Part shown: positions 1,325-37,206 of the stretch, one piece after another
Layout of the letters: each line of letters opens with the position of its first letter
Numbering within the stretch: position 1 is the first letter of the stretch
From: Zygnema cylindricum
Lineage: Eukaryota; Streptophyta; Zygnematophyceae; Zygnematales; Zygnemataceae
Assembly: GCA_037447655.1 (NCBI GenBank)
Contig: JBBHKE010000680.1
Span: forward strand, 1 to 39,435
DNA: 39,435 bases
Direction: 5' to 3'
The notes under the pieces: generated by a model
Database searches by the model: none
The model's input: the letters and a program-made list of their open reading frames with translations, nothing else
Told to the model about the DNA's origin: nothing
Program-made: the position numbers and the translations under genes

Positions 1325-4280
<2,956 letters not shown>

Positions 4281-9659: not shown

Positions 9660-9667
9660 GTTTTTTG

Positions 9668-14002: not shown

Positions 14003-14361
14003 CTATATAGCGTTGCATGCCGCGTATGACAATGTGTTGCGTAATCTATGCAACGTAATAACGGCGGCTCAGTAAGGCCTTAAGAATTTTGAATATTGCG
14101 CTAAATGTTGGTTACAGATGGATAGAAAAAAATAACAAAAAACTAAAACCGAGAAGCCATGGCTTAAAGTTCCAATGTTATTGATGTCGACGTTGTCACA
14201 TGTAAGGACTACGTCACAATGTCATAAAAACGTAGACGTCTACAACGTAACAATAAAATTGACGCCCACGGTAATGGATCGTGGCAAAATTATGTAGGCG
14301 CTCACATGATTAATAAACCATTTCGTTTTCGGGCATTGATAACCCTGAAAACTGGTATACT
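14003..14361. other. Remainder of the split A-family element and a dispersed repeat fragment
   Basis: Positions 14003 to about 14110 continue the interrupted A-family copy. Positions 14147-14260 resemble segments at about 11885-11990 and 16455-16580 (shared AAGCCATGG, CGACGTTGTCACA, ACGTCACAATGTCA, TAGACGTCTACAACG), a dispersed non-coding repeat. No gene is seen. Confidence 0.5.
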
Positions 14362-14819
14362 ACACCGTGAATCGCTATTAACGTTAATAACGCTAATTCG
14401 ACGGCCCCAAATTTTGAACGTTGAACCTAAAATATAATTAATAACTTTAAGTGCTTTTTTACATTAATATAGGTAATGCTCAATTAGTGTTAATAAATAT
14501 AATTTAGAGAGTTTTAAATAATGTATCATACGAAATGTGTGAGTCCGTACTAAAACTACTCATTATTTCGAAGAGACGTACAAAATAAGTGTAAAAAAAA
14601 GTCGTCGACACGGGAAACTCGATGCGTTACCACAGAAAAGCACAATGAACATAGGTTATGCTCGCTACACTATGGGAAAAATGTACCCAAATTAGCGTTA
14701 GTGAATAGATTAGAGAAAATTTGTTTTTGACAAAGGGCATTGAACCCAGATTATAATCGAAAACACTAATTGTATTTACACACTAATTAATTCTTAATGC
14801 TAATAGCTATTCACGGTGT
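14362..14819. mobile_element. TIR element of the CACGGTGT family, copy 1
   Basis: The left end is ACACCGTGAATCGCTATTAA. The right end complements it imperfectly (GCTAATAGCTATTCACGGTGT). The interior is AT-rich with GTACAAAATAAGTGT and a GTCGTCGACACG segment that recur in the other copies. There is no ORF. The flanking duplication is unclear. Confidence 0.7.
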
Positions 14820-14827
14820 GCACCACT

Positions 14828-15311
14828 ACACCGTGAATCGCTATTAGCGTTAATAACGTTAATTATACACCTCCGAATTATGACCCTCGGACCTAGAATA
14901 CAATATATAACTCAGTTTCTTTTTACGTTAGTATAAGTACTTTCTAATTAGAGTTAATAACTCTAGTTCAGAGAGTTTCTAACTAGTGTAGTGTACAAAA
15001 TATCCCAGTTTGTACTAAAATTGCTCGTTATCTGGTACAATCGTACAAAAAGAGTGTCAGATAAAGGCGTTGACACGCGAAAGTGACTGTGTCGACACGA
15101 AAAAGCACACTCAAATTTGATTACAAGCGATAAAGACGGGGGGGGGGAATTAAGCGAGCATGTTCTCACATGTTCAACAAATCAGCTTTATGGAATAAAT
15201 TAGAGTAATCTTTTTTTTGGCGAAAGGGCATTGAGGCAAAATTAGGGTTAATAATGTTATTTGTTATTTTACACTAATTATTTCTCATCGCTGATAGCGA
15301 TTCACGGGTGT
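14828..15311. mobile_element. TIR element of the CACGGTGT family, copy 2
   Basis: It starts ACACCGTGAATCGCTATTAG and ends GATAGCGATTCACGGGTGT, 8 bp after copy 1 ends. It shares internal GTACAAAAAGAGTGTCAGAT and CTCACATGTTCAA with other family members. Non-coding. Confidence 0.7.
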
Positions 15312-15316
15312 ACAGT

Positions 15317-15903
15317 ACACTCTGAATCGTTATTAGCGTTATAAACGCTATATCGACGCCCCCAAATTTGTAGGGTTTTACTTGAAATATAATTAATAAC
15401 ACTGTTTTTTTTTTTAGGTTAATTAAGGTTTTGGTGAATCAGCGTTAATAATTATAATTTATGATTTTATTGAATTGTGTGATGTACAAACGTGTCAGTC
15501 CGTACAAAATGGTAATTTCTTAAGTATAAAAGTATGAAATATGGATTAAAATTATCGCGATCGCACGTAAAACTGCACTCATAATAAAAGTAGAATGAGA
15601 TTGTACCTATTTTAGTGTACATATATTGATCCCGTATTAACTATACGGGAGAAAACCCAGATTAGAGTTATGAATAACTTAGAGTAAAATGACGCGACGG
15701 TGTATGATTTGTCAGATTTCGTGCTTTTACCTATTTTATTGTGAAGACCCTGCTGGCAGTTTTGTTGTACCCAAATCAACGTTATGGATCAATTAGAGTA
15801 ATTTGTTTTTTTTCGAAATCTTAAAAAATCCAAATTAGCGTTAATAACGCTAATGAATTGTTAACATTAATAATTCCTTGACGCTAATAACAATTAAAGG
15901 TGT
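15317..15903. mobile_element. TIR element of the CACGGTGT family, copy 3 (diverged)
   Basis: It starts ACACTCTGAATCGTTATTAG and ends ACGCTAATAACAATTAAAGGTGT. ACAGTAC lies at both borders (15312-15318 overlapping the start, and 15904-15910), which may include its target duplication. It completes a head-to-tail run of three related elements. Confidence 0.6.
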
Positions 15904-16984
15904 ACAGTACTAAAAAGCAAGGTTTCATCGCTAAGGGTACTTCCCATATCTACTTTTCTCTATCTTTTTGCCCTAAAATCCAGGGAACTTTGACAAAAAC
16001 TTTAGCCGTACGAGAAAATCACTTTTGCTAAAGTAGAGTGAACGTCAATTCATACTTTGGATGTACGACGTGTTTGTCGTCATGTGAACGCATTTTGGCG
16101 TTTTCCCCATTTTGACCCCCCGGCAAGAGAATCCAACCCAAAAAAAAACTTCATCCAAAATCACCTCGAGGATTTGGACGAGGGAGAGTCCTCGCTATTT
16201 TTCTCCGTGCCCGTCACGCCCATGTACGGAAAATTTTTTGCAGGGGTCTCGGCCCTCCATTTTCATTCATGGGTCCTTTGAATAATTTTTCGCCGTTGTC
16301 GCCTCTTCCCTTTCCCTCTCACACTATCGCTTGTATCTCACACTTTCTAGAATGAGACACGACAATATTGGTATAAAATGAAAGATTTTTTAAAAATATT
16401 ATTGACAATTTTTAGGTTATTTTTTAATGGCAAGTCGAGTGAGAAAAGTAAATAAAACGAAATTGGGAAACCATGGCGGAAAGTTATTGAATCAGTGACG
16501 TCGACGTTGTCACAAGTGAGCATGACGTCACAATGTCACCAAACCCTAAACATCTACCATTTCACAAAAATCTAGACGTCTACCACTGTCGCTGTTTTTG
16601 TTGGCGTCACCAATCGTCGGAAGTTGCGTAGTCGGTTTCAATCGCCACAATATGTACCTACGTCTACAGCCGTCACATCTCAAAGTTTCGATTTCATTTT
16701 CGCACATAAGGACGCTCTTCAAAGTAGTACGGAGAATCTTTACTACAGTCCCAAATACTTTATCAAAGTACCGATTACATGGGGACGTACCCTGAAGTAC
16801 AGTTAAATGGGCACACAACCCGAGGAGATGTACTGCGTCCTAGAAAGTACAGGAGTTGTAGATTTCAGAACCGAACACAAAAAAATATCGGTGTGAAGCC
16901 ACTTATATGGCACGTGGCTTAAACATCTAACGTCGAGATCAGCAGTCATCGCAGAGGTAACCACGTACACAATTTTAAAGCCGT
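15904..16984. repeat. Diverged copy of the interior of the family B hAT element
   Basis: Blocks here match 11330-12010 in the same order. Examples are AGAGTCCTCGCTATTTTT / CGTCACGCxCATG, CATGTACGGAAAA..TTGCAGGGGTC, TTCATGGGTC, and AAACCATGGCGGAAA followed by TGACGTCACAATGTCA and AAACCCTAAACATCTAC. The hAT termini are absent. There is no coding potential. The stretch to 16984 holds nothing else I can name. Confidence 0.6.
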
Positions 16985-18199
16985 TCGATCATGGAACCTA
17001 GAGCGCAAATGTGTAGGAAGTCTTATCTTTTACTTCGCGTTTTTCGTATGTACATTAAATTGCTCGAAGTTTATTCTAAAGTACGATGTCAAAATATCAA
17101 CTACTCACCGTACTCAGGAAAAGGACGAACTCCAAACATTGCGGGATATTTTTATCATTCTTCACAAATGAGCGGGCGCGAAAGGTCGAACCCCAACGAC
17201 TGCGGGATATTTTCGCCATTCTTTACAAATGAGTGGCGGCTGACAACGCGCCTTAACTTTTCGAAACTCCCCGACTACCGGTGACTATGTTCGACTGTAT
17301 TTCCAAGCGTGATAGTCAACACATACATGGAATCGTAACTCTTCGCCTATCGAACTATTGAGTACGAAAGCTTGTAACAGTCGATATTGTACTTACATAT
17401 CATAGAGTTCGATGTACAAACTGTACAATCATATTTTCTGTTTTATGGCATAGAGCATAGATGTCTCACGAGCATAAAACGCACGCGTGAAACGCCCAAA
17501 AAATAACGAATATGCGCATGAAACAAAATTCAAAAAATTATAAAATGCGTTGACCGACTTTCACTTTATAATAAAAGAAACATTATAAAAACATCTAATA
17601 AAAAATACTACTAAAACTTGATCAAACCATAGTTCAAAAGTAGGCGTTTTTATGGTAGGCCTATGGTAGGAGCACAAAACTTGGCACAAAACTCGCGTAG
17701 AGTAGGCATACTGTACATGTGTGCGTTCCTGCACACTTTTGTACGAACGTACTAATGTGACGTATGATCATAGTACAACGCACTTTTGTACGAACGAACA
17801 GATATGACGTATGATCATAGTACAGCGCACGTCGCTGGACGAAATTTCAGCGAACTGACACAGCGTAGGATGAGTTGTGTTATGGGCTTTTCATGTGATC
17901 TTTTATCCTTGCTACTTTGATCAGCGACCGTCCAATCGTCCAAATCTGTCGGCTTAAATAAAAAATACTTCAAAACTCACAGATTATATTTTTTTGTCCG
18001 AATGTTTTTCAAAATTTAGACATGACATTTAATTCTCTATCGATCGACGTGCAACTCAACCCTGTTACTATTTGTTTTCATTTTGCGACCAATACAATAT
18101 GGGTCTTAAGGCCATATTGTATGTTTTACAGACAATAGGCATATTGTATGGGCCTACTTTCACCTACTTTTGAAATATGGATCAAACTTATTTTTGTTT
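16985..18199. repeat. Non-coding intergenic DNA with two local tandem duplications
   Basis: A duplication of about 60 bp covers 17124-17184 and 17185-17243 (shared TGCGGGATATTTT, CACAAATGAG). A 47-bp duplication covers 17734-17780 and 17781-17827 (CACTTTTGTACGAACG ... TGACGTATGATCATAGTACA). Short open frames here show no family features. Confidence 0.7.
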
Positions 18200-18861
18200 T
18201 ACGTTATTATGCGTACTGTTTAATTAGCGTTAGCTACTCTAATTTCGAGTGCTTTTAAGAAGTGCAATGTACAAATTGCCTCTGTTCATACTAGAATATT
18301 CATTATTTTGTACAGGCGTACAAAATAAGTGCCACGTAAGGGCGTCGACAAGGGAAATAGAGTGCTTCGCCACAGAAAAAAGAGCACGCAGATTTGATTC
18401 CAAGTCATAACGACGAAGAAAAATCACAAAAACCTATTCTCACATGTTTAATTGTCAAACATGTGAATGCAGACTGAAGGTACTGTTTAATTGGCGTAAA
18501 TTGCTCGTTTTTTTACTTTTTCAAAAATTGAAATAGTGCATTATAAAGAATGAATCAGTTCGTACTGCTCATTATTTTGTATAGAAGTACAAAATAAGTG
18601 TCAGATAAGGGCGTCGAAACGAGAAATTGAGTGCGTCGCCACGAAAAAGCGCACTCAGATTTGATTCTCGGTCATGAAGACGAGGGAGAATCGCAAGAAT
18701 CTGTTCTCACATGTTCAAGCGTCGAACATGTGAATAAAGACAACCACGACTACATCCAAATTACTGTTAGGTTTATGAATTAGCGTTAGCTTTTGACTTT
18801 TTGTTAGCGTCAGACCCTTTAACCCAAAATAGTGTTTAGCGCTAATAACTATTCACGGTGT
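18200..18861. mobile_element. CACGGTGT-family fragment with a tandem internal duplication
   Basis: Two copies of a block of about 265 bp (about 18207-18475 and 18485-18745) share TACTGTTTAATT, TCATTATTTTGTA, GTACAAAATAAGTG, GGGCGTCGA, a GTCGCCAC/CGCCAC segment and GCAGATTTGATT. Each copy ends in a palindrome: CACATGTTTAATTG..CAAACATGTG and CACATGTTCAAG..CGAACATGTG. The right terminus TAATAACTATTCACGGTGT ends at 18861, one base before the retroelement target duplication. Confidence 0.65.
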
Positions 18862-18865
18862 ACGT

Positions 18866-19048
18866 TGTCGAGCGTGCCTGGTAACCGGGAGGTCCAGGTT
18901 ATATGTCCAAGGAGATGTGCATGAGAAACCTGCAATCCACCCCAAATGCTGATGCTCCCTTAGATCCGTGATAATGCCCATCTCTGTTCATTACCCCCCC
19001 CAGGGATATGCATAGAGAGTAAGGAGGAATGGATTGGAAAAGAAAAGT
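18866..19048 (-). repeat. Terminal block B2 of the retroelement
   Basis: It is about 97% identical to 20561-20748 apart from C-run length (8 against 15). The plus strand reads TGTCGAGCGTGCCTGG at the outer end. Its inner edge (GAAAAGAAAAGT) is fused to a sequence that in the full unit lies inside ORF1, so the join removes everything equivalent to 20749 to about 31009. Confidence 0.85.
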
Positions 19049-20558
19049 AGAGGTGGAGGTGAGGGTTGCCTCTCTGTCGGCCTCGGAGGAGTCTCGACGA
19101 CAACCGGATTGGGCATCACCCCCTTAAGAAACTGTTCAATGTTCAAAGCAGAGGTGAAAGGGACCGATTCCTCAGGCATCTGGGACTCTTCCTCTTGTGC
19201 CACCCCTTCTTGTCTTTCCTCTTCTTCCGGACTAACACCGAAGGATCCTTATCCGGAGCTTCTCCTCCGCCCATGACTTACACGAGCAGATGAGCTAGAT
19301 CCCTCGGATAAAATACATTACCCTAAGCAGCTATCCTCTTAAACAAAAGGGGACAGAGCTTTTTCAGTACTGTGCTACTCCGCTGGAAGCCCACTAAATG
19401 CCACACTCCCAACTACTCTCCAAAGAATAGGAAGGAAATGAGAGTCGTCCGATCCTTTCCGCAAAAACTCCGGACAAACCCAAAGATGACCACAAGAGTG
19501 TGCAAATAACTCCGACGCAGAAATATAGAAATAATAAATATCGGCTTTTCAGATTAAACAATATCACCTTGCCCCAGAGAATGAAATTAAAGATAGAAAT
19601 GAATGATAATGGTGAAGCGAATTCACATACCCCGGAGTGCAACGATGACCAAACTCAGCAGAAGAAACCTCTCCCAATGGCCCCGAAGACCGGTATGAGT
19701 CTCCCTCAACCCTCCCGGTTCCACCGCAAGGATCCGACAAGACTCTTATTAGTTTCAAACAGCGAAAGTCTAAACCGCCCAAAGAGGAGATAGTGCCAAC
19801 TACCCACCCGGTTCACGGTCTCCACAAAAGACAATCCAAAACAAAGATGGCAATAGAGTCCACGACACAATGCAACCGTTCTCCAACAGAAAGATTGATT
19901 TTAATTCTCTGGGGGTTTTCTCAGGAGACAGTACTGAAAAAGCAACCTGTCTCCTTCGGCCCCAAGTGCCTTATACAATTAGAGTTCGTCCTACTGCAAG
20001 TTCTAAAGTCAAAGCAATTTAACAAGCCAATCAGCGGCCAGCAATTGTTATCGTCCGGACATAAGACAAAACAGACTGTACTACACTCAGGGCTAAAATA
20101 TAGACGACTAGTTTCGGCTGAATTCGAGGCCAAAGATCCTTCTATAATACACAAAATGGAAACAAAGTTCTGACTCGACGTGAAACCGCCTAACTTTGTC
20201 CCTTCGTCATAAATGCTTTGCCTGGTGGTTGGGCCTGAACTAACATCATACAGACAGCTAACAGTAAGATCTACGAGATAATCCCAAATGTGACGTGTCG
20301 TTCTCTAAGGTATCCCTCTACTAGAGCTACATAGAACACACACTATAATGGATCAAACACTTTGCACCGGACTAACTCCTCAGTTCGACCTCCGTTTAAG
20401 GTGAACTAAAGTGTCTAGGGTTCCAGGATGAAAATAGAAAGATTTGATCTAGCTGATTGTCCTCTTCTTTCTCCGTACGCTAGAGTCCGTACAAAGTGGG
20501 ATGAAGCCTCGAACCTCTTGGGAGTGCAAATGTGCCGAAGATGCACACGCGCTTGACA
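19049..20558 (-). repeat. Terminal block A2, direct copy of 31010-32520
   Basis: It matches the right-end block over about 1.51 kb with some 25-30 substitutions, mostly transitions, that I could find by eye. It includes the first part of ORF1, where a 1-base deletion (CCGAAGGATCC against CCGAAAGGATCC) breaks the frame. It ends GCTTGACA at 20558, followed by gc and then block B1. Confidence 0.9.
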
Positions 20559-20560
20559 GC

Positions 20561-20748
20561 TGTTGAGCGTGCCTGGTAACCGGGAGGTCCAGGTTATATG
20601 TCCAAGGAGGTGTGCATGAGAAACCTGCAATCCACCCCAGATGCTGATGCTCCCTTGGATCTGTGATAATGCCCATCTCTGTTCATTACCCCCCCCCCCC
20701 CCCAGGGATATGCATAGAGAGTAAGGAGGAATGGAGTGGAAAAGAAAA
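20561..20748 (-). repeat. Terminal block B1 with a 15-G tract
   Basis: It begins (plus strand) TGTTGAGCGTGCC, directly after GCTTGACA-gc, so two element termini are abutted. It contains a C15 run at about 20689-20703, which is G15 on the element strand and could serve as a polypurine primer. It lies between the PHD-like finger ORF and block A2. Confidence 0.8.
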
Positions 20749-20822
20749 GTACCCTGTACCCCCCTTCCCAGATTCCCCCCCCCCCCCCTCTTAGTCCCAC
20801 GTGACTAAGAGGATTAGACAGA

Positions 20823-22940
20823 TTAGCCGCCAAAATCGCAGTCCCCACAGAACCACGAATTTGCGGGTTGAGAGCGAGGCTCCCAATTCAGAGGTAGGCA
20901 GCAGTCATGCCACCCCTGGTGACAGTGTTCACACACCAACAGGAGGTAGGGTGCGGAGGACACATGGCAAGCAATGGAACAAGCTGGAGGGTCTGCAAAA
21001 TAAGTGAGGTGGAAAGTGGGTTCATCCTCTAACCCTCGCAGATGGCAAGTGGCCACATTGATCTGATTTTCTTTAATTTTGCGGCCATCCTTCCCCTCCA
21101 ATGTAAAAACCCCTTTGTTTGAGACCTCTTTCAAAATCACCCGTCCGGCCGAAATGTCCAAAGTATCCTTCTTTTGTTGCATGCGATACACAAAATTCCC
21201 GAGCACAAATCGACGTTGCCAGAGGACATAATTGCCGCTCCGTCGTTGGGAATACAAGAGTTGATCTCTGTGCTGAGCAGCCTGTAAATTGCCCATGGCT
21301 AGAGGTATTTCCCGCTGAAATACCTTAGCCCGGTCGGCAATCAGTTTCTCTACAGTACCCTGGTTGTCCATCTCCGGAAGAACAACCGCCTGAGCCGACG
21401 CAGCCCCTGGTAGGATGAGATGTCGGCCAAAGAGAATGAAGTAAGGGCTATAGGAGTGGAGAGATGCTTGCCTGTTGAACCTGTACCCCATGGCAATCTA
21501 AGGCACCCGTGTGTCACACTCCCCCAAATCCTCTTCAACCGCATATTTCCGTAGTGACCGCTTCACTGTCTGTACGCACCTCTCGGCCAAGCCGTCGGCT
21601 TGGGGGTGGTCTTCGCTGGTTAACCTGTGGTCAATGAGGCACTTCTCCAAAAGGTTAGAAAATTCTCCGGCAAACTCAGACCCCTGATCCATTAGAACTT
21701 CGGCCGGTGCTCCAAATTGAGACAACACTCTCCGCAAAAATGCGTCCGCGATTGCTTTGGACTCCTTTCGGGGAAGAACCACCAATTCAATCCACTTAGA
21801 GAAGTGTTTAATCATGACCAGAACAAAACGGTTCCCCTTGCGGCTAGTGGGAAGTGGTCCTAGCAGATCTAGTGACCATCTGTAAAACATCCCCCGGATG
21901 GGGAGAGAGTGAAGCTCTGTTCCACCCTTTTTGTCAAAAGCTGCTTTTACCCGGTCACAGGAAGTGCACGTTTGCACCACACGATTGACCTGGGCCCGCA
22001 ACCCATGCCACCAATACGACCCTGTGACTAGCGAGGTTATTTGTTTCTGTCCGAAGTGCCCGCATTGCTGGTAAAGCCGAACAATGAGCGTTTCCCAATT
22101 TGCTGGAGGAGGAACCACTTTCCTCGTCCCATTGGCCCATTTCCGGAGAAGGATGCCTCGGTCCCATTCATAAGCCGCCATTCGGTTCTGAACACGGGAC
22201 AATTGACTTCCGGCAAGGTGGGATAGAGGAGAGCCCTTCTGGATGGATTGGAGGGAATCGCTGTCATTCCATATATCCTTCCGGCTGGCTCCAATGGGGG
22301 CCTGCCCCTCTACATCTGCAGCAAAAGTTGACAGTTCTCCTTCGGCTCGAGGCAGCCAAATAAAAGCGGAGGAAGCCTGGATAAGTCCCAAGCTGAGCTC
22401 AGGGTCTTTGTCATGTCGCGCCCCTGTAGAGTCTCTGGTTGAAGGGTCCGGATTCCTGCTGAGTCCGTCAGCATTCCCATGAATCTCCCCGGCTCTATGG
22501 ATGATGCTGAAATCATATTCCTGCAAGATGAGAACCCATCTGGCCAGCTTTCCAGTCAACTTACTGTTCTCCATGATCCATTTAAGGGGCTGGTGATCCG
22601 TTATAAGGGTGAAGTGTACTCCATAGAGGTAAGGCCGGAAGTGTTGGATGGCCCAAACCGCAGCGAGTAATTCCCCATGGTAACTGCTGTAATTCCCCTC
22701 GGCTCTGTTATTACTCCGGCTTGCGTAGGCCACTACATACTCAGCCCCTGCATCGTCCAATTGAGCCAAAACTGCTCCCAATCCGAACCTGCTCCAATCT
22801 GTATAAAGGAGGAAAGGCCGCTGGTGATCGGGCATCCGGAGCACAGGATGCTGTTTGAGGGAATCCTTCAGGAATTGGAACGCTATCTGCTGTTCTTCCT
22901 TCCACTGCCACTCCTGGTCTGTTCGCAACAATTGGTTCAA
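20823..22940 (-). pseudogene. RNase H, integrase and PHD-like finger (one in-frame stop)
   Basis: RNase H has D48 (YTDWS), E90 (YHGELLA), D115 (LITDHQPL) and D158 (GNADGLSR), numbered from 22940. The integrase zinc domain reads LYQQCGHFG ... CTSCDRVK, with Y where the first His is expected. The catalytic core has D in RWSLDLLGP, D in VLMDQGSEF and E in DGLAERC, spaced D-x34-E. At 21498-21500 a TAG replaces the Trp expected in the VP-W-IA motif, and the same frame continues to 20823. The C-terminal part ends in a PHD-like signature: C-x3-C, C-x2-C-x4-H-x2-C, W-F-C-x2-C. The frame is otherwise open for over 700 codons. Confidence 0.9.
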
Positions 22941-23918
22941 TGGCTGAGCGTGGCTACTGAATTCAGGAATAAACCGCCGGTAATAGTTGGCAAGGCAGAG
23001 GAAAGTACGAAAGCAGAAATGTCCTGCGGGGGTGGAAGAGCATCTAGGGCTGCCACCTTAACCATGTGGGGACCCACTGTCCCGGGAGTCACCTCATGAC
23101 CCAGATAAATATTTTTCTGCACCTCAAAGATGCCCTTCCCCGGGTGACACTTCAAACCCGCTGCTTGGAGTGCCCGGAGAACGATCTGTATGTGCTCCAA
23201 GTGTTCTTCGAATGTTTTGGAGAAAATGATAACATCGTCGATATAACACCGTGCGAAATAAATTCCCCGGAGAGCCTTGTCCATGGCCCGTTGGAATTTG
23301 GCAGGTGCATTTTTTAGGCCAAATGGCATGTAGAGCCATTCATATAGCCTGGATCCGGCCCAAAAAGTAGTCCTCTCTCGGTGTTTCGGCTCCATTGCAA
23401 TCTGGTGGAATCCATTTTTCATATCCAAAGTGGAGTAAATGGTGGCCCCAGCCAGAGAGTCAAAGATCTCTTCCGGGGTTAGGCATAGGATAACGGTCGG
23501 AGACAGTTGCGGCGTTGAGCATCCGATAGTCCCCACACATCTGGAAATCTACCATTTTTCCGGAGGAGTCTTTCTTTGGCGGGAGCACGGTTGGTGAGGC
23601 AAACCCATGTAGTCCTGTACTCTCCTGAACCAGCCTAGCTTCCACCAAAGTCTGCACCTTTGAAGTGATGAACTCCTTCTCTTTGAAACTGAGGAGGTAC
23701 TGTTTCTGCCAAACAGTAGCCGTCTCGTCGATCAAGTCAATCCGAAAAGGAGTCCCTTTATAGATCCCTACATCGGTGTCAGACCAGGCGAACACCTGCC
23801 CGTTATCTTCTATCAGCTTGGAGAGCTCGGCCTTCTGCTGTGGGTCTAGCTGTTCACCTAGAGTCCAGTCCATCTTCCCTGGTTCCATTGTCGCCAATGC
23901 TTCCGGTGGTCTACCCAA
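22937..23918 (-). pseudogene. Ty3/gypsy reverse transcriptase, two frameshifts
   Basis: The N-terminal RT motif KEKEFITSKVQTLVEARLV and CGDYRMLNAATVSDRYPMP lie in the 23918-23460 frame. The palm continues in another frame (23536-22937) with YSTLDMKNGFHQI, FGLKNAPAKFQRAMD and the catalytic CYIDDVIIF. The frame returns to the first one near 23015, just before the RNase H segment. The shifts lie at about 23475 and 23015 and compensate each other. The catalytic aspartates are intact. The fusion to the upstream methyltransferase frame is also shifted, near the (GA)4 run at 23920-23928. Confidence 0.9.
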
Positions 23919-25384
23919 GAGAGAGAGTCGAAGGTCAGCTCTACCTTTGGGTCGGTCCCTTGTTCGGCTGTTAAAACGCTGCTGTTGACAACTTCCTCTA
24001 AGCTGTCCTGTTCTGGGACTCCGTCCCCCCCCACTAAGGAAACTCCTGGGTCCAGTGTGCCATTGCTCCCCCCCACTGAGGAAGTTCCTGGGAATTTGGT
24101 GAATGTGAATTTTTCCCTCCTTGTCTCTCTCCCCCCCTCAAGCTTTAGAGTTGCTTGCATAGCCAACAACTGTGGAGCTTGAAGGTATGTTGTCCGTGAT
24201 TGTGGAGACTGAAGGCTTGAAAATGCAAGAGAATGTTTCAGCACCCAGGAAATTGCATTTAAATCCATGCTTTGTCCGATTAAACTGCACCTTTTTGAAG
24301 CCGATACCCCTGGCGCAGCTGTGGTTCCCTGTTGAAACCCCATTGCTTGTTCCCGTTCTGTAATATTCGGCGCTGTCCACGTGGCGGTTGTACTGTCAAA
24401 GATCATTCCTGGTGCGCCCTTCCGGTAAGCGTGGCTATTAGGAAAAGATACCAGAGTTGGGAGGGCCCTCCGTGGATACCCAGGCTTATTACAACAGAAG
24501 AAGGGTGCTTTGTCGGCTGTGATCACCGGTGTGGCCATTCGCCCCGGTCCGAGGATCTGTTGGATCGTGATGTTGGGATCTGTAACCTGTGATCTCAACA
24601 GCTGTTGGAGGATTGAAAGAGGAACCAAGTTGGTCCAATATGCCCGAACTCTGTGGGCTCTCGATCCGATCTGAGCTGCATCAAAAACTATGGGAGTCCC
24701 TAGAACCTTGGTCAATTGGTTCCAGCTGTTGACCACCTGTTTTCTCTTATCATCTGTGGGGTGAACGTTTTCCAAGACGTACCCCACTGGTGTGTCTTGG
24801 CGTTCCTGTAACTCTGTTATTAGTCTGGTCATTTGAAAGAAAGTTCTGCTACGGACGTTCTGGTGTCCTCGGCCCTGTCCTGCTAACGAATACCCCTGGC
24901 ATGGCCATCCAGCGACCACAAGGTCTACCCTTTCGAGCTTTTCCAGATGGGACTTCGTGATATTATCCACATTCTGGGGAAGCGTGCGATGAGAGTTAGA
25001 CATGGCGGACACCGGGAGTTGCTGTGGGTAAAGTTGGTGCAACTGTTGCAGGCGGTACTCACAGACTGCACAGGCGGCCGGGTCTATCTCGACTGCCGAG
25101 TAAGTTTCTATTTGGTATCCAGCTTTCAGGACGGCTTCCTGATCGGAACTAATGCCAAAAAATAGGGATAGAATCCTAAGTCTTGAAAGCGGGATTTGTA
25201 TTGACACCACTTGTCGATTAAAGTCTTTCCCTTTGTTAGGAACCGTTGGAAGTTCCGACCGGGGGACTTTTGCTGCTCCGGGTGATATTGCAGCCAAGCT
25301 CCTGTCCACTTCCCGCCGAAGTGTGGCCATCTGTACCAATCGGTTCTGATACTCCCTTTTCCACCGCTTGGAAATAGGGAATTG
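23858..25384 (-). CDS. Retroelement-borne cytosine-5 DNA methyltransferase, DNMT3-like
   Basis: The uninterrupted frame runs from the codon after a TAG (25385-25387) to 23858. Numbered from 25339, the motifs are: I, RILSLFFGISS (55-65); II, YSAVEIDP; IV, AGWPCQGYSL with catalytic C147; VI, VLENV (E190); VIII, SRAHRVRAYW; IX/X, EREQAMGF followed by SKRCSLIGQSMDLNAISWVL. Motif order is conventional, not rearranged as in plant DRM. The DKR after ENV and the GF...LIGQSxxxxxI tail resemble DNMT3. It would transfer methyl from SAM to C5 of cytosine. No separate target-recognition or reader domain is seen apart from the PHD-like finger encoded downstream. The last 100 residues are a Gly/Ser/Thr-rich linker. 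An ATG (MATLRR) lies just inside, but in-frame continuity with the protease suggests it is made as part of a polyprotein. Confidence 0.93.
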   Translation of the reverse strand, partial: QFPISKRWKREYQNRLVQMATLRREVDRSLAAISPGAAKVPRSELPTVPNKGKDFNRQVVSIQIPLSRLRILSLFFGISSDQEAVLKAGYQIETYSAVEIDPAACAVCEYRLQQLHQLYPQQLPVSAMSNSHRTLPQNVDNITKSHLEKLERVDLVVAGWPCQGYSLAGQGRGHQNVRSRTFFQMTRLITELQERQDTPVGYVLENVHPTDDKRKQVVNSWNQLTKVLGTPIVFDAAQIGSRAHRVRAYWTNLVPLSILQQLLRSQVTDPNITIQQILGPGRMATPVITADKAPFFCCNKPGYPRRALPTLVSFPNSHAYRKGAPGMIFDSTTATWTAPNITEREQAMGFQQGTTAAPGVSASKRCSLIGQSMDLNAISWVLKHSLAFSSLQSPQSRTTYLQAPQLLAMQATLKLEGGRETRREKFTFTKFPGTSSVGGSNGTLDPGVSLVGGDGVPEQDSLEEVVNSSVLTAEQGTDPKVELTFDSLSWVDHRKHWRQWNQGRWTGL

Positions 25385-25975
25385 CTAGATAGAATCAGCG
25401 ATATCGTTAGAGTATTTGAACACCTCCGAGGGGGTTGAGGCAGAGTAGACGGGATAGCATCCAAACACCGGAACAGTCGTTTTTCCCCGGTTCCACAAAT
25501 CCAAGGGGACCACCACTTTTGTTCCTTTCTGATCCTCAGTGTCTGAGACTGTAACTTGTTCCTTCCATACGCTCAACTCCATGTTCAACCTTGTCCACGT
25601 CGCCATACCCAGCAAAATTTCAAATTGCTTACCTTCCACCACTAGGAAGGGAAGCCGAACCTGCACGTGCTGGCCTGCATTGTCCGCAAATTTGATTTCC
25701 ATGGCTTTTATGATCCCATATACTGATTGGCTACCACTACTGACTGTGCTCAAGCATATGTCACTTGGACTGATTTTTGGCCGGAGTTCCTCGGGCATTT
25801 GTTGTAACGCTGATGTCGTTATTAAGTTTGGAAGAGCTCCGGTATCCACCACTGCATCCTGGTACCCGCCGTATCCATTAAGTTTAAAATTTCCCGTCCT
25901 GTTGAGGATAAGAGCCACCGAAAGGGCCTTATAATCCCTATCTGCCCATAAAGGTTTTTGATTCTGCCGACATGA
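25385..25975 (-). pseudogene. Retropepsin-type aspartic protease
   Basis: The active-site motif AVVDTGALPNLIT is present, with downstream LPFLVVEGKQFEILLGMATWTRLN giving the hydrophobic-hydrophobic-Gly (ILLG) signature. The frame opens at about 25975, where it is shifted from the upstream segment, and closes with TAG at 25387-25385. The next codons are in frame with the methyltransferase. Like other retropepsins it would act as a dimer to cleave the polyprotein. Confidence 0.85.
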
Positions 25976-27024
25976 AGACTGTCTTGGGCGGTTCTGCCAA
26001 CGCGACCCTTTTCCTCCTAGTGTGAATTTCTTCCCCTAATGCCTGTATGAGGGTTTCTTTGGGCATATTGTGGGAGGAAGCCAGCGTTTTGACATGCGTC
26101 AAGGCGTAGGGCATTAAGTGTCGTACTAGCATGACTGCCGGTTTGGAGAAAGGAGGGAGAGCTTTGGGCGATGAAATGGGTGAGTCCTCGTCTTCCGATT
26201 TCTCCTAGTCCCCCCATCTTCTTCCTTACTTTCTGCGTCAGATTTCCCCGTAGGAGGTGTAATTGGCGGATCTGTGGACGGTCTCTCTACCATGTATCTG
26301 TCAAACCATTCCTGATCTGTTTCAGTGGTTGAAGTATTTTCTTTCGGTTGTGTCTTCTTGTAATCTTCAAAACCGGGAGGAAGTTTCTTCGGAGCCGGAG
26401 GGGGCGGGTTAGTCGGCTTGAGTCCAGTCCAACGTCACTGTTTAGAAGTACTGCTCGCGGGGTCAAGGATAAGGGGCCGGTGGCTTTGCGACTGTGGTCC
26501 CTTTGTTCCATCGGTTGTTTGTCTTTTCTTTGGAAGGACGTTGTAGAGCGCAGTTGCCTGCGACTGTCCCCTACACCAACGTTCCATGCTCCGGACAGAA
26601 ATGTCCTAGCATGCTGAGCCTTTGGAGGCTCCATATCCCAACCCATCGGGTCATCATCATCTCCACCCAACGTGGTTTGCTGCTCCAGCTCCGCTAGCTT
26701 TTGTAGCAGTTCTTGTTTTTGTTTCTGCAGTTTCTAAGCCGGCGTAAGAGGTTGAGGAGTGCGGGCAGAGGATCTCAGTCGGAGAGCGGCCAGTTCTGTT
26801 GCCAAAGCGGCCAACTGAGTGCTCTGTTGCTGAATGATATGTTCCGGTGTCAGTCTGCTGGGCCCCGGTTCATTTGGAGATCGTCCCCACGGATACAAAA
26901 GTTGCAGTGGCAGAGGATTAACGGCAGTTTCCCCTTCGCCTGTAAACAATGCATACTGCATCATCTCCTTCGGAACCCATTTTTCCGAAAGCATTGCCCT
27001 TCTTTGTGGCCCATGAACCCACAA
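25938..27024 (-). pseudogene. Gag-pol linker: Gln-rich, coiled-coil and Pro-rich segments
   Basis: Read on the minus strand from 27024, a Pro/Leu segment is followed by a Gln/Ala-Leu heptad-like stretch (QQQSTQLAALATELAALRL). A TAG at about 26734 follows, and in the same frame KLQKQKQELLQKLAELEQQ comes next, a likely coiled coil. The frame then changes at least once, with the best continuation rich in P and E up to the protease at about 25975. The segment at 26132-25938 shows LAEPPKTVFMSAESKTFMG. I assign no enzyme activity here. Confidence 0.55.
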
Positions 27025-27668
27025 GCTTCACATTTTGACCCTTCAGTAGTATACTTCCCCCTTAGCTCATTAGAGATTTGAGCATCATCGAATTTCGGAA
27101 GTCGGATTTGTCTCAACTGGGATTGAGACATTTTGGCGGTTTCAAAGCGTGGAGTAGTTTTATAGGTTTCCTTAGTGACTAGGGTTCGGTCTCCTCCTCC
27201 GCCTCCTTGCTTGCGATCTTGCTGTTTCCTTGTTCTTTTCGCCCGCTCCCTTTCAAACTCTTTCTGCTTGATGGCGAGTTCTGGTTTGAGCTTTTGGGGG
27301 CACCTCTTCCATCCGTGACCTGGCTGGTTACAGTTCAGGCAATCGTAAAGAAAAACTTTTTTATCTCTCCCCATTGCAGGTTCTGGTCGGGCATCCGCTT
27401 CCTGCTTCCCCTTAAGCTTCCGCAAAGCTTGCAGTTCTGTCTGTTCGTCGTGGTTGAGCGATGTTTCCCCGGCGAAACCTGCAAAGTTGGCTCTGGATTT
27501 CCCGGTAACAGCCTTTTCTCGTGCCTCGCTATTAACAAAATGATCATACAATTTCATAGCAGCCAATGAAATTTCTAGAGCTGTGGGATTCCTATCGTGT
27601 ATAGCGTGACTGGCGCTCCAATTGTCCAGCAGCCTGTCCTTGCCTGAAGGAATTTCGAACAGCGACAT
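26961..27668 (-). pseudogene. Gag nucleocapsid region with two CCHC zinc knuckles
   Basis: The frame has CLNCNQPGHGWKRC and CEACGFMGHKEGQC, both perfect C-x2-C-x4-H-x4-C knuckles that bind RNA in Gag. They flank a Lys/Arg/Gln-rich stretch (FERERAKRTRKQQDRKQ) and GGGGG. The frame ends at 26961 by a shift into the next segment. It is in the same register as the gag N-terminal part at 28802, but the stretch between them (about 27780-27670) is readable only in another frame. Confidence 0.88.
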
Positions 27669-27669
27669 A

Positions 27670-28802
27670 ATATTTGGTGGCCATAGCCGGTGTATCTATG
27701 GTGGACAGTTTGGTCTTCTAGTAGAGGCTGGAGAATCGGTTGAACAGCGTTTGGGGAGTTTCATTCTTCAAACAGCGGAAGTCTGTGAACTCCTTGATGG
27801 CAGTTTCGTTCTTTCTGTGTAAAGGAGTCTCCAAGCGTCCAGAAGGGTGGTACAGGGATTAGGATTGGCAACCATCCGGGTGGCCGCTTCGGCTTCCTGT
27901 ACAGCCTGAAGGTGGTTGACAAAGGCCCTGCCTTGGGCCTGAAGTTTCATATCCATGGTGAAAGTGGGGGTGAGAGGAGCTGCGGCTGCGGCGGCCAGGT
28001 CGCCTGCTGCTAAAAGAGCCTCGGCGTCCAGATCCGGATCCGATATTTTGATACTGGGGGCCATTAACAAAGGTTGACGCTCCTTGTAATCGGCCACAGC
28101 TCCTCCGGCTAGATAATTTACCATCATTGGAAACAGGGTTGTTTCAAAATCTACTGGAATGGCCCCTCCCCTGTATTTGTTGATTTCAGATTGGGTGAAC
28201 GACTTCCACAGCAGTTCGAAATCAAAGAAAGCGATTCCCGAGCTATCTCCTGTAAAGATCCTTACGTCCCCCATTTCTTTTTCCTCCTCTGCAAGGTTGG
28301 TGAACTGTGAAGAGGATGGGCCGGTTGGGCTAACAAACTGAACCGGTGAAATTACCCCTGGATCTGCGTCGTCTGGCTCGGGCTCGCCTCCTTCTCCGGT
28401 AGAGGGAGCGGTCTGATGAGAGATGGCACTCCCCCCCACTGAGAAAGTTCCGGTTACTGGTGGGATAGTGAGATGACCAGTATCTCCCTGGTGTTGACCC
28501 TTGGGAAACGAGGACTTATCACCTTGGGAAAAGCTTGTAACTCTGAGACCTCCATAGGACCTCAGAGTAGGCAGCTCACACGAAGCCTCTAGGATAACCC
28601 TGACCCCTTTGTGTTTCAGCAAGAATACCTGCCACCCTGGCAGACAAAAAGTCTGACCACCTTCACCCCTGTAAAGGCAAGACTCCCCTGAGTCTATAGC
28701 AAAAAGAATCTCTGAATTTGTTCCTCTGAGCAGTAAGTTATGAAGGGTCAAAGTAGACCTTTTGTACAGAAGCTCTCTGGGAGAGAGGGTCCAATCTATC
28801 AA
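27670..28802 (-). pseudogene. Gag matrix/capsid region, frameshifted
   Basis: The 344-aa frame ends at 27768. It contains an acidic Pro/Ser-rich linker, then a capsid-like segment (VRIFTGDSSGIAFFDFELLWKS, where the usual Gag has a short F.G....W), an Ala-rich run, and LLDAWRLLYTER. At about 27790 the frame shifts and continues as TAIKEFTDFRCLKNETPQTL and FNRFSSLY, which resembles the retrotrans_gag core, then hits a TAG and shifts back to reach the knuckle frame. The N-terminal 80 residues (RELLYKRSTLTLHNLLLRG...) are unassigned. Confidence 0.7.
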
Positions 28803-29560
28803 TTTTTTCTAAGTCCTATCTCTCTCTAAACTCTATCTACTGAAGTACGGCACCAATCATAATAGTGTATCGTACATAAGTTACAAGTGCCGATGTACTT
28901 TATGTACGGATATTGTACGACATGGCCAATAAGTCGACACATGCCATTTTTGGATTCGTTCTTGGAATCCCAGGAGATGTCGCAATCCAATGTGATTTTG
29001 CCACGTGGCAATTGACGTGACGTCAACCGCAAACCGCCGAAAACTTATTCCACGATCTCGGCATGCTTCGTGGCCGTCCGATTAAGCCGGATTACAATCG
29101 TGACCGTCATAAATACTTCCGCAGTATTTGTTTCGCTCTCTAAACAAAATGCGCAGTATTCATTTCGGATGTTTCGTACGCCGTACTTTACAAACTGTGT
29201 CTATGTTTAAAGATCCGTTAAATGAAATAGACTACGTGTTAACATTTAAATACCTATCAAACTATATATCTTCAAGCATGATGGCAGACTAAATGGCTAA
29301 GGCTACAGGCTAAGTTGACGGGCGGTAGGTACCAGGTTCAAACCCTAGGTCCGTCAATTTACATTTTGGTAAATCTACCAAAATCTACAACCAGTAACTT
29401 TATCTCTAATCACCATAGGCAGCCATGGCTCTAGCTCCCTCTTCAACCTATAGTGACTACGACAAGTGTGGGAGCTGAAGAGAGAAGTTAGAGGCAGACT
29501 GCCTCGGCTTCTTTTCTGCATTTTGCAAAACCTAGAAAATACTAAAATAACCTTTTATTT
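28803..29560 (-). other. Non-coding spacer between ORF1 and gag in the retroelement
   Basis: There is no ORF on the element strand. Features are a tRNA-like sequence at 29279-29356 (plus strand) and a perfect 8-bp hairpin at 29364-29383 (TTTTGGTA/TACCAAAA, 4-nt loop). The base composition is like the surrounding intergenic DNA, so a later insertion into the element is possible. Confidence 0.55.
29279..29356 (+). other. tRNA-like sequence (SINE head or tRNA pseudogene)
   Basis: It has a B-box-type GGTTCAAACCC at 29335-29345 and a weak A-box-like TGGCTAAGGC at 29294-29303. The acceptor stem could pair TGATGG (29279-29284) with CCGTCA (29351-29356, one G-T pair). The T-stem has four of five pairs. 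I could not place a confident anticodon. It is antisense to the retroelement. Confidence 0.35.
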
Positions 29561-31236
29561 CTACAAAGCTGCCCGAAGTCCTGCTCCTCTATACCTAGGA
29601 GAGGCCCGTTCCTCCCGTTGAAGTGTTTCCACCGAGGGAATGTGGAGAATAGGTTTAGTCACCGGTGGTACTTGAGGGATTGGTGGAGAAGGGGATGGAG
29701 ATGACCGAGGACTACGATGGAAAGGTGTTTGTCTCTGTGTACGCCTTTTGGAGGTTTCGGGTGGAGGAGTTCCTTCGCTGGAACCGGGAGAACGTCGGTG
29801 AGGAAGAGAGTGGGCAGGAACGTCGTACTTGTAGGGTAAGACGGGTGGTCCTGGTGACCCACGGACTGCAGCGGCCGGAGAAATAGAAGGCGAAGGAGAG
29901 GATGCCTGAGGTGGCGATGGAGGAGGAGTAGTGAGTCCGAGGGAAATGTGTAGTTTCTGGTCTGGATGTAGCTGCACCACGGCCTCCACGGTAGAAGATC
30001 CCTCGACGGACGCGTGGCAAGGGGAGTTGCCTGATCCAGAGGTTGTTCTTCCGTCGCGGGACCTGTTCTACGGGGAGGTGCTACCCGTCCACTAAGGATT
30101 CCCCCAGATCTCCGTCTAGCCTCCCGTATCAGGATCAGCTCCTCTTCCAATGCTTTCTTCCTTTCCTCTTCAAGGGCATCCCAATCTATTGCGACGGGTT
30201 CGGCCCTCGCCGTAGCCTTATCCTGCGATCGCAGAATCTCAACCAATTTCTGGGTGCTGCTCACCACACCCGAGAGATCCGCAATCCCCAAACCGGGTAC
30301 CTCGGGGTCCGTAGGCCTTGAACGCCATAGTCCTTCGGATGGTCGGACAACTGGTGCGGAAGGAGACATAGAACTTGGGGAAATTGAGGCAGAAGGAAAG
30401 AACGGCTCTTCTTTGATTAGGGGAGCAAATCAACCTTTGCTGTCCCGATGGTTGAACCAGAAATCTCTCTTAGGCTCAGGTATCTTCCGCTTGCTACTCC
30501 CTTCCCTGGTCCGGCCCTGAGAAGTTGCTCTGCCCCTAGAAGGTCTACTGGTAGCAGTTTTTTGAGATATGGTGGGCTGTTGTCGTGCAGTAGACGTCAT
30601 CTCCGATTGCTCTCGGGCTGAGATGGGAGAGCCACTCTCGGACGAGCTACTTAGGATCTCCACTACTCCTCCCACTGGGCGTATGATCCGGGCTTGGTCG
30701 CTTCTGGCAACCCGCTGCACCAGCTCCTTCTTAACCTTAAACTCATGAATATTGTGAAGGGCTAGAATCTTCTTACGACCGGATCGGGTAGGATCCGACA
30801 AGAGTTGAGGATCCATGTATGTCTCCACTATTAGAGCCTTGGATCTGGTATAACGTACCACCTCGGGAGGGTGGCATGGGACCGCTTCCTTGTGTGCCAA
30901 ACCCTTTCTTCGAGATCGGGGAGATAAAGGTTGTCTTTTTACCTTCCCCGTGGCCCTAGCTCTGGCGGCCTTGGACAACGACGGAAAGTTTTCAGGGGTA
31001 AAGACTGGAGGAGGTGGAGGTGAGGGTTGCCTCTCTGTCGGCCTCGGAGGAGTCTCGACGACAACCAGATTGGGCATCATCCCCTTAAGAAACTGTTCAA
31101 TGTTCAAAGCAGAGGTGAAAGGGACCGATTCCTCAGGCATCTGGGACTCTTCCTCTTGTGCCACCCCTTCTTGTCTTTCCTCTTCTTCCGGACTAACACC
31201 GAAAGGATCCTTATCCGGAGCTTCTCCTCCGCCCAT
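29561..31236 (-). pseudogene. ORF1 of the retroelement, unknown function, disordered
   Basis: It starts at ATG 31236 (MGGGEAPDKDPF). It is open for 268 codons, has an in-frame TGA at 30430-30432, continues in the same frame through 30369 to about 29985, and then appears to shift into the 29989-29561 frame. The composition is Pro, Ser and charged residues. Recognisable pieces are a Pro-rich TERQPSPPPPP, a basic patch (KVKRQPLSPRSRRK), VVEILSSSSESGS resembling a SUMO-interacting motif, and a helical EEERKKALEEELILIREARR. No enzyme domain is seen. Its first 75 or so codons lie inside terminal block A1, so the 3' terminal block also carries a truncated copy (18991-19203 region). It could be a Gag-like or accessory protein. 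Confidence 0.55.
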
Positions 31237-32520
31237 GACTTACACGAGCAAATGAGCTAGATCCCTCGGATAAAATACACTACCCTAAGCAGCTATCCTC
31301 TTAAACAAAAGGGGACAGAGCTTTTTCAGTACTGTGCTACTCCGCTGGAAGCCCACTAAATGCCACACTCCCAACTACTCTCCAAAGAATAGGATGGAAA
31401 TGAGAGTCGTCCGATCCTTTCCGCAAAAACTCCGGACAAACCCAAAGATGACCACAAGAGTGTGCAAATAACTCCCACGCAGAAATATAGAAATAATATA
31501 TATCGGCTTTTCAGATTAAACAATATCACCTTGCCCCAGAGAATGAAATTAAAGATAGAAATGAATGATAATGGTGAAGCGAATTCACATACCCCGGAGT
31601 GCAACGATGACCAAACTTAGCAGAAGAAACCTCTCCCAATGGCCCCGAAGACCGGTATGAGTCTCCCTCAACCCTCCCGGTTCCACCGCAAGGATCCGAC
31701 AAGACTCTTATTAGTTTCAAACAGCGAAAGTCCAAACCGCCCAAAGAGGAGATAGTGCCAACTACCCACCCGTGCTACGGTCTCCACAAAAGACAATCCA
31801 AAACAAAGATGGCAATAGAGTCCACGACACAATGCAACCGTTCTCCAACAGAAAGATTGATTTTAATTCTCTGGGGGTTTTCTCAGGAGACAGTACTGAA
31901 AAAGCAACCTGTCTCCTTCGGCCCCAAGTGCCTTATACAATTAGAGTTCGTCCTACTGCAAGTTCCAAAGTCAAAGCAATTTAACAAGCTAATCAGCCGC
32001 CAGCAATTGTTATCGTCCGGACATAAGACAAAATAGACTGTACTACACTCAGGGCTAAAATATAGACGACTGGTTTCGGCTGAATTGGAGGCCGAAGGTC
32101 CTTCTATAATACACAAAATGGAAACAAAGTTCTGACTCGACGTGAAACCGCCTAACTTTGTCCCTTCGTCATAAATGCTTTGCCTGGTGGTTGGGCCTGA
32201 ACTAACATCATACTGACAGCTAACAGTAAGATCTACGGGATAATCCCAAATGTGACGTGTCGTTCTCTAAGGTATCCCTCTACTAGAGCTACATAGAACA
32301 CACACTATAATGGATCAAACACTTTGCACCGGACTAACTCCTCAGTTCGACCTCCGTTAAAGGTGAACTAAAGTGTCTAGGGTTCCAGGATGAAAATAGA
32401 AAGATTTGATCTAGCTGATTGTCCTCTTCCTTCTCCGTACGCTAGAGTCCGTACAAAGTGGGATGAAGCCTCGGACCTCCTGGGAGTGCAAATGTGCCGA
32501 AGATGCACACGCGCTTGACA
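31010..32520 (-). repeat. Terminal block A1 of the retroelement
   Basis: This is the 5' end of the element on its coding strand: TGTCAAGCGCGTGTGC at 32520, followed by the leader and the start of ORF1. It is a direct repeat of 19049-20558. A TATA-like TTGTATAAGG lies at 31940-31931 on the minus strand, about 700 nt before the ORF1 ATG. A 9-bp perfect stem-loop lies just downstream of it. Confidence 0.85.
31885..31917 (-). promoter_or_regulatory. Stem-loop next to a TATA-like site in the terminal block
   Basis: AGGAGACAG (31885-31893) and CTGTCTCCT (31909-31917) form a perfect 9-bp stem with a 15-nt loop. The same structure is preserved without change at 19923-19955 in the other copy. It lies 14 nt downstream of TTGTATAAGG on the element strand, so it would sit near the transcript 5' end. 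Confidence 0.45.
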
Positions 32521-32524
32521 ACGT

Positions 32525-37129: not shown

Positions 37130-37206
<77 letters not shown>

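What the first reader, a model, noticed from the sequence alone, without database searches (positions are those of the whole stretch)
20823..25384. Retroelement polyprotein combining a DNA methyltransferase with a PHD-like reader
A DNMT3-like cytosine-5 methyltransferase with all core motifs (PCQ, ENV, SRAHRVR, LIGQS) sits between the protease and RT of a Ty3/gypsy element, and a PHD-like finger follows the integrase in the same frame as the integrase. DNMTs inside retrotransposons have been reported for dinoflagellates and charophytes (de Mendoza and colleagues, 2018). I do not know of a description of the protease-DNMT-RT order together with a PHD-like finger. A writer and a chromatin reader in one element suggest it could mark its own cDNA or insertion site, or target chromatin by histone state.
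Basis: partly seen in the sequence, partly recalled or inferred. Interest (0 to 1): 0.95.

Follow-up and report, generated by a model that had tools for sequence, protein, structure and literature searches.

The report
Retrotransposon with DNA methylase and PHD-integrase
A decayed plant-type jumping element carries both an enzyme that marks DNA with methyl groups and a finger, fused to its DNA-inserting enzyme, of the kind that reads histones; the methylase type of element was known, the finger appears to be an undescribed but conserved addition.

Summary
On the minus strand of 18866-32520 lies a 13.7-kb Ty3/gypsy-type element with the order gag (zinc knuckles, by eye), protease, C5-DNA methyltransferase (DNMT), RT, RNase H, DDE integrase, PHD finger. 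The DNMT passes its Pfam cut-off; as a family profile it matches DNMT3A best (1e-24) among solved structures. The PHD is weak in this copy (18.4 bits, cut-off 24) but six relatives carry one right after the integrase (four whole, two cut short); the four rescanned score 8.9e-9 to 2.8e-12. That anatomy (Dnmt3 in gypsy Pol, DIRS-like repeats) was published for KnitGypsy-Dnmt3 of Klebsormidium nitens (de Mendoza 2018), so this is a relative of a known kind. New, as far as my searches go: the conserved integrase-PHD fusion, and a B1/A2 junction that looks like two joined integrase-ready ends. This copy is broken (stops, frame changes). DNMT and PHD on one contig were seen only in the window; host-genome copies and folds could not be tested.

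The parts
18866..32520 (-). Whole element, 13,655 bp, ends TGTCAAGCG...CGCTCGACA
   Evidence: Repeat edges, TG/CA ends
31011..32520 (-). A1, 5' repeat; includes the ATG and first codons of the upstream ORF
   Evidence: 98.2% identical to A2, 24 mismatches and 3 gaps in 1511
20561..20751 (-). B1 repeat, 3' of the coding region
   Evidence: Repeat with B2; 6 substitutions in 182 aligned
20559..20560 (-). GC dinucleotide between B1 (..CA) and A2 (TG..), circle-junction-like
   Evidence: one search printed junction ...CTCAACAGCTGTCAAG...
19050..20558 (-). A2 repeat
18866..19049 (-). B2, 3'-terminal repeat
32521..32524 (.). ACGT, one copy of putative 4-bp target duplication
18862..18865 (.). ACGT, other copy of putative target duplication
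30430..31239 (-). Upstream ORF (no Pfam domain above cut-off), starts within A1
26961..28808 (-). Gag-like region, interrupted; two CCHC-type knuckles read by eye in 26961-27695
   Evidence: Pfam only far below cut-off (zf-CCHC_4 E 0.32, C1_1 E 0.18)
25385..26035 (-). Aspartic protease-like ORF
   Evidence: PF13650 E 6.9e-05, 23.9 bits against cut-off 24.3
24245..25177 (-). DNMT3-class C5 methyltransferase domain, motifs in linear order (edges by eye)
22937..24137 (-). Reverse transcriptase, split over two frames (23460-24137 and 22937-23548), YIDD kept
   Evidence: RVT_1 1.2e-24 in the second part; the first part matches P0001 and P0007
22515..22904 (-). RNase H (gypsy type)
   Evidence: PF17917 1.5e-36, PF17919 5.9e-34
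21609..22109 (-). Integrase: H2C2 zinc binding and rve DDE core
   Evidence: PF17921 2e-11, PF00665 3.6e-12
21000..21497 (-). Integrase C-terminal (GPY/F-like, by eye) region
   Evidence: alignment with P0011-P0018 and P0020
20838..20972 (-). PHD finger at the integrase C-terminus
   Evidence: PF00628 18.4 bits, below cut-off; conserved in relatives

Best explanation
This is a decayed copy of a Dnmt3-carrying gypsy retrotransposon with DIRS-like split direct repeats, of the kind of KnitGypsy-Dnmt3, whose integrase ends in a PHD finger. Proposed cycle: (1) RNA made from a promoter in A1 is packaged by Gag and copied by RT/RNase H [inferred from domains]. (2) The element ends that the RNA lacks are restored from the internal B1-GC-A2 junction, the logic supposed for PAT/Ngaro elements [inferred from anatomy]. 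(3) The Dnmt3 domain, held with RT in Pol, methylates cytosines (CG most likely) of the new double-stranded cDNA or of the fresh insertion [inferred; CG activity was shown by others only for dinoflagellate DIRS DNMTs]. (4) The DDE integrase trims the ends to CA and inserts the linear cDNA, leaving a 4-bp duplication [TG/CA ends and ACGT seen; mechanism inferred]. (5) The PHD on the integrase holds the complex on histone H3 tails, most likely with unmodified lysine 4, and so biases where insertion happens [inferred from PHD subtype].
For: Domain hits and order. DNMT3 class: best PDB hits of the single sequence are DNMT3A/B/C (3.1e-11 at best), M.HhaI from 9e-05; family profile DNMT3A 1e-24, DRM-type 3.2e-11, HhaI 1.4e-8, no DNMT1 or CMT among the 56 matches up to 0.01. 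Same order in relatives: P0001, P0003 and P0007 map collinearly to DNMT then RT; P0009 (Closterium sp. NIES-54) to protease (E 0.001) then DNMT. PHD: 6 of 16 integrase relatives carry it, P0011-P0014 whole and P0015-P0016 cut short; the other 10 end before it or at its first ligand; 8.9e-9 to 2.8e-12 in the four rescanned, P0011, P0012, P0013, P0016; the PHD profile's best solved matches include CHD4, KMT2C/D, KDM5, ATXR5, BAZ2 (best 60 of 119 shown). Split repeats A1-B1-A2-B2, TG/CA ends, ACGT flanks. No tyrosine recombinase or chromodomain in the 20 element ORFs scanned. The published K. nitens element has a Dnmt3 in gypsy Pol and repeats 'the same as that of a DIRS retrotransposon'.
Against: DNMT and PHD on one contig were seen only in the window; no longest-contig length was shared between the DNMT hits and the integrase hits. 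Motif IV and VI strings vary among relatives: of 9 rows that cover them, PCQ stands in 5 and ECQ in 4, ENV in 4 and ENA, ENT or EHV in 5, though Cys and Glu are kept in all 9. In de Mendoza 2018 the KnitGypsy DNMT gave no methylation in yeast (called inconclusive). The window PHD has C-x3-C instead of C-x2-C at the first ligands and scores under the cut-off; P0014 has lost one ligand. This copy is broken. The ACGT duplication is one palindromic 4-mer at one site (1 in 256 by arithmetic), and the empty site could not be shown. The subtype reading (unmodified H3K4) rests on recalled binding data.
Confidence: 0.6

Rival explanations
1. Ordinary tandem or rearrangement: the real element is A-coding-B, and A2-B2 is an internally deleted copy joined to it through end-to-end cDNA (a circle junction) before insertion. 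The split repeats are then an accident of this copy.
For: A1 runs into an ORF whereas A2 is cut off within that ORF, as a deletion derivative would be; B1|GC|A2 looks like two joined cDNA ends.
Against: The same A-coding-B-A-B arrangement is reported for the K. nitens Dnmt3 gypsy element (legend), so it is more likely a family trait. Divergence of the A pair and B pair is compatible with one insertion event (Fisher p 0.12 for 24/1509 and 6/177).
Confidence: 0.2
2. The DNMT and PHD are passengers with no role in transposition; the domains persist by descent only.
For: The copy is decayed; no activity data; motif IV and VI strings vary among relatives; most Ty3/gypsy elements do without either domain (recalled).
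Against: The catalytic Cys and Glu and the GS-x-AH motif are kept among relatives 30-53% identical to the window; seven of the eight PHD zinc-ligand columns are invariant in five aligned fingers, the eighth being lost only in P0014. Ka/Ks below 0.2 was reported for KnitGypsy DNMTs.
Confidence: 0.15
3. Writer and reader work together in a cleaved or uncleaved Pol: the PHD brings the DNMT to H3K4-unmethylated nucleosomes, as the ADD domain does for animal DNMT3 (recalled), so that the element methylates its landing site.
For: DNMT3 class of the catalytic domain; PHD subtype near KDM5, BAZ2, ATXR5; CpG o/e of the element 0.66 against 1.18 (left flank) and 0.88 (right flank), as after past methylation.
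Against: RT, RNase H and integrase lie between the two and the Pol-side protease could release them from each other; few A-pair transitions are at CpG (2 of 17 inside the element; one search prints 18, one being the flank base next to A); CpG depletion may reflect base composition or host methylation.
Confidence: 0.15

Closest known systems
KnitGypsy-Dnmt3 (Klebsormidium nitens; de Mendoza et al. 2018, PMC5890265)
   Same: Dnmt3-class DNMT, not rearranged, in the Pol of a gypsy element; repeats arranged as in DIRS elements but gypsy domains
SymbioDIRS-Dnmt3 (dinoflagellates; same paper)
   Same: Dnmt3 sharing an ORF with RT; A-coding-B-A-B repeats
   Different: Encodes a tyrosine recombinase, a different retrotransposon class; here DDE integrase
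PAT / Ngaro split-direct-repeat elements
   Same: A1-B1-A2-B2 repeat layout (PMC4157794, passages)
   Different: No tyrosine recombinase found here; DDE integrase, TG/CA ends and putative target duplication
Chromoviruses (gypsy integrase with C-terminal chromodomain; recalled, and abstracts in the listing)
   Same: Histone-reader-type module at the integrase C-terminus
   Different: PHD finger, no chromodomain hit; also carries a DNMT and split repeats
Ginger1-9_HM DNA transposon (PMC2836005, passages)
   Same: Gypsy-type integrase/transposase with a downstream PHD
   Different: DNA transposon with inverted repeats; the PHD goes with an Ulp1 domain; no RT or DNMT

Membership tests
Ty3/gypsy retrotransposon | Protease, RT, RNase H and rve integrase in this order | tested here: met
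   protease just under its cut-off (23.9 against 24.3 bits)
Ty3/gypsy retrotransposon | Two identical LTRs with a primer-binding site next to the 5' LTR | tested here: not met
   A1-B1-A2-B2 instead of LTRs; the recalled plant initiator-tRNA primer site (up to 2 mismatches) matches only outside the element; other tRNAs not tested. I therefore call it gypsy-type, not a standard LTR element
KnitGypsy-Dnmt3-like elements | Unrearranged Dnmt3-class DNMT inside gypsy Pol | tested here: met
KnitGypsy-Dnmt3-like elements | DIRS-like A-coding-B-A-B repeats | tested here: met
   definition
KnitGypsy-Dnmt3-like elements | DNMT clusters with KnitGypsy sequences in a tree | not testable with these tools
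   No KnitGypsy sequence was identified among the hits; the tree has only the window, 13 relatives and two phage DNMTs
DNMT3 family | Closer to DNMT3 than to DNMT1/CMT, DNMT2, bacterial M.HhaI | tested here: met
   (profile and single-sequence scores, not a reference tree)
DNMT3 family | Catalytic motifs I, IV, VI, VIII, X in linear order | tested here: met
   motif names recalled
PHD finger | C4HC3 zinc-ligand pattern and Pfam profile | tested here: inconclusive
   Window copy 18.4 bits under cut-off 24, C-x3-C at the first pair; four relatives 35.7-46.9 bits
DIRS/PAT (tyrosine recombinase) elements | Tyrosine recombinase domain | tested here: not met
   No such Pfam hit in the 20 element ORFs scanned (E up to 1, up to 0.1)
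Chromovirus | Chromodomain on integrase C-terminus | tested here: not met
   PHD, no chromodomain

The most novel reading that the evidence does not exclude
A retrotransposon lineage of streptophyte algae that carries its own epigenetic kit: a de novo cytosine methylase that marks the new DNA copy and a PHD-tipped DDE integrase that chooses chromatin by the state of the H3 tail, replicating through split direct repeats whose internal junction stores the integrase-ready ends. It would be a third way, besides LTRs and tyrosine-recombinase circles, to keep element ends.
Probability: 0.3. Interest if true: 0.85.

Novelty: new variant of a known kind. Interest (0 to 1): 0.6.

Why it matters
It makes two open questions testable in one element: why retrotransposons pick up DNA methylases, and whether an integrase can be steered by a PHD finger. 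It also suggests how split direct repeats can serve an element that inserts with a DDE integrase, a combination that the K. nitens report notes in a figure legend without a mechanism in the sections I read.

Tried and rejected
Chance fusion or nested insertion of an unrelated gene: rejected, since relatives keep DNMT-RT, protease-DNMT and integrase-PHD neighbours.

Bacterial or phage origin of the DNMT: a viral-contig scan with alignment A1 gave two loci (L001, L002) with DNMTs at 25-26% identity beside phage-like genes; a tree sets these two apart from the window and 13 relatives (100/100), but it is rooted at the midpoint, several forks are open and the phage rows have a different letter make-up. 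The bacterial/archaeal scan gave 14 pattern matches, none confirmed as a relative; it used one peptide pattern. Viral scans with the DNMT ORF and the integrase-PHD alignment gave no confirmed relative.

Same-contig proof of DNMT plus PHD in relatives: a second DNMT search gave three further proteins and no shared contig length. This does not exclude it: only the 8000 best word-sharing candidates were scored.

Empty-site test: the joined flanks gave no other copy spanning the insertion point within the window; inconclusive.

CpG mutation footprint: weak (2 of 17 A-pair and 2 of 5 B-pair transitions at CpG, where the A count of 18 includes one flank base).

Host genome copies: not tested. Fold of DNMT and PHD: not tested, the tool was busy and then switched off.
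Full report
What is there. The minus strand of 32520-18866 holds one 13,655-bp element. Pfam finds, in order, an aspartic-protease-like ORF (PF13650 6.9e-05, 23.9 bits, just under its 24.3-bit cut-off), a C5 DNA methylase (PF00145 1.7e-13, 51.1 bits against 22), RVT_1 (1.2e-24), gypsy-type RNase H (1.5e-36), integrase zinc domain (2e-11) and rve core (3.6e-12), and a PHD finger (PF00628, 18.4 bits, under its cut-off of 24). Upstream are an interrupted gag-like region with two CCHC-type knuckles (by eye) and an ORF without a domain above cut-off. Ten further ORFs of the element gave no Pfam hit up to E 0.1; no tyrosine recombinase or chromodomain was seen in these 20 ORFs.

Decay. Protease and DNMT share frame -3 with an in-frame TAG between them; the RT N-terminal part is in frame -2, its C-terminal part in frame -3, RNase H/integrase in frame -2, and one TAG separates the integrase core from its C-terminal part. 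This copy is not functional as it stands.

The DNMT. As a single sequence its best solved relatives are DNMT3A/3B/3C (3.1e-11 at best), then M.HhaI (from 9e-05). As a profile of eight sequences: DNMT3A 1e-24, DRM-type 3.2e-11, HhaI 1.4e-8, DNMT2 8.3e-06, and no DNMT1 or CMT among the 56 matches up to 0.01. Motifs run in linear order, unlike DRM (which is rearranged). Thirteen relatives were found (10, 3 more; each search scored only the 8000 candidates sharing most words). In the alignment, nine rows cover motifs IV and VI: the catalytic Cys and Glu are kept in all nine, but the string is PCQ in five and ECQ in four, and ENV in four and ENA, ENT or EHV in five. Three relatives (P0001, P0003, P0007) map to the window's DNMT and then its RT; P0009, from Closterium sp. 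NIES-54, maps to the protease (weakly, E 0.001) and then DNMT. P0010 also ends in an RT-like stretch by eye, without a hit. The protease-DNMT-RT order therefore looks like a family trait, though no relative shows all three in one protein.

The PHD finger. A search with the integrase C-terminal ORF gave 16 relatives; 6 (P0011-P0016) carry PF00628 right after the integrase, P0015 and P0016 being cut short within the finger, and the other 10 end before it or at its first zinc ligand. Rescanning four of the six gave 5.1e-11 (P0011), 2.8e-12 (P0012), 1.1e-10 (P0013) and 8.9e-9 (P0016). In an alignment of the window and P0011-P0014 ten columns are invariant: six Cys, the His, the Trp before the last Cys pair, a Leu and a Pro; the eighth zinc ligand is lost in P0014, and the window has one residue more between its first two Cys. 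The profile matches CHD4 (3.9e-23), KMT2C/D, KDM5 (5.6e-19), ATXR5 (7.8e-18), BAZ2B and BAZ2A, and further down PHF21A, AIRE and UHRF1 (best 60 of 119 shown). Several of these read the unmodified H3 tail (recalled), hence the prediction of H3K4me0 binding.

The repeats. A1 (32520-31011) equals A2 (20558-19050) at 98.2%, 24 mismatches and 3 gaps in 1511 (one search counts 25 in 1509 because it included one flank base). B1 (20751-20561) equals B2 (19049-18866) with 6 substitutions in 182 aligned. The layout is A1-coding-B1-A2-B2, as in PAT/Ngaro elements (PMC4157794, passages). Outer ends are TGTCAAGCG and CGCTCGACA; the inner B1/A2 junction reads ..CTCAACA-GC-TGTCAAG.., which looks like two cDNA ends joined with one spare base each. 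ACGT stands on both outer sides. TG/CA ends plus a short duplication point to DDE integration, not tyrosine recombination. A1 contains the start of an ORF, so A is not a classical LTR.

What is known. De Mendoza et al. 2018 (PMC5890265; abstract, sections 6, 9, 10, 11 and search passages read) describe KnitGypsy-Dnmt3: Dnmt3 in the Pol of a gypsy element of Klebsormidium nitens, repeats 'the same as that of a DIRS retrotransposon', Ka/Ks below 0.2, no activity of that DNMT in yeast (inconclusive) and CG activity for dinoflagellate DIRS DNMTs. The words PHD, zinc finger and target site are absent from its main text; its figures were not available. It is the only paper of the library that uses the name KnitGypsy. 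PMC12344493 (2025; passages) speaks of DNMT3 in 'LTR Copia and DIRS' elements as reported before. PMC6338049 (passages) lists chromodomain and exonuclease accessory domains and does not contain the word PHD. Searches for PHD on LTR-retrotransposon integrases (140 papers, 20 listed; 5; 12; none) brought up, in the listings and the passages I read, Ginger1 DNA transposons, a paper on LINE ORF1 (PMC4120745, listing only) and a review on steering retroviral integration that mentions PHD fingers (PMC8149907, listing only, not read). Further searches. Absence from these searches is not proof of absence: subscription papers and repeat databases were not searched.

Host. Flanking genes are serine hydroxymethyltransferase, F-box and Kelch proteins and a lactate/malate dehydrogenase; the last looks like the plastid malate dehydrogenase of streptophytes (recalled). 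The species was not identified. CpG observed/expected is 0.66 in the element against 1.18 and 0.88 in the left and right flanks.

Verdict. A real, decayed element of a known rare kind (Dnmt3-gypsy with split repeats), with a new conserved part (integrase-PHD). The mechanism given is inferred; the anatomy is shown. Missing: other copies in the host genome, same-contig DNMT and PHD in a relative, folds, and any biochemistry.

Noticed in passing
window 9400-18860: About 9 kb of AT-rich DNA without long ORFs beside the element is built of degenerate repeats (14 direct-repeat families), some recurring at 34.1-34.9 kb; CpG o/e is 1.49 in 9600-18860.
   Followed up: partly
window 14780-14850, 15270-15340, 18830-18865: The element sits next to a recurring motif ending ...ATTCACGGTGTA; in two other copies this motif is, by eye, the left arm of an imperfect palindrome, which may have been the target.
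   Followed up: partly
window about 3500-3900 and 37140-37220: Long CT-repeat tracts next to or within the SHMT and malate dehydrogenase genes (translated as SLSLSL runs).
   Followed up: no
window 20690-20790: Two G-runs (C-runs on the + strand) in and just before B1, polypurine-tract-like; the run length differs between B1 and B2.
   Followed up: no
L001 686-1840, L002 10019-10960: DNMT3-like cytosine methylases in two phage-like IMG/VR contigs; L002 also has a ribonucleotide-reductase-like gene that appears to hold an intein (by eye).
   Followed up: no
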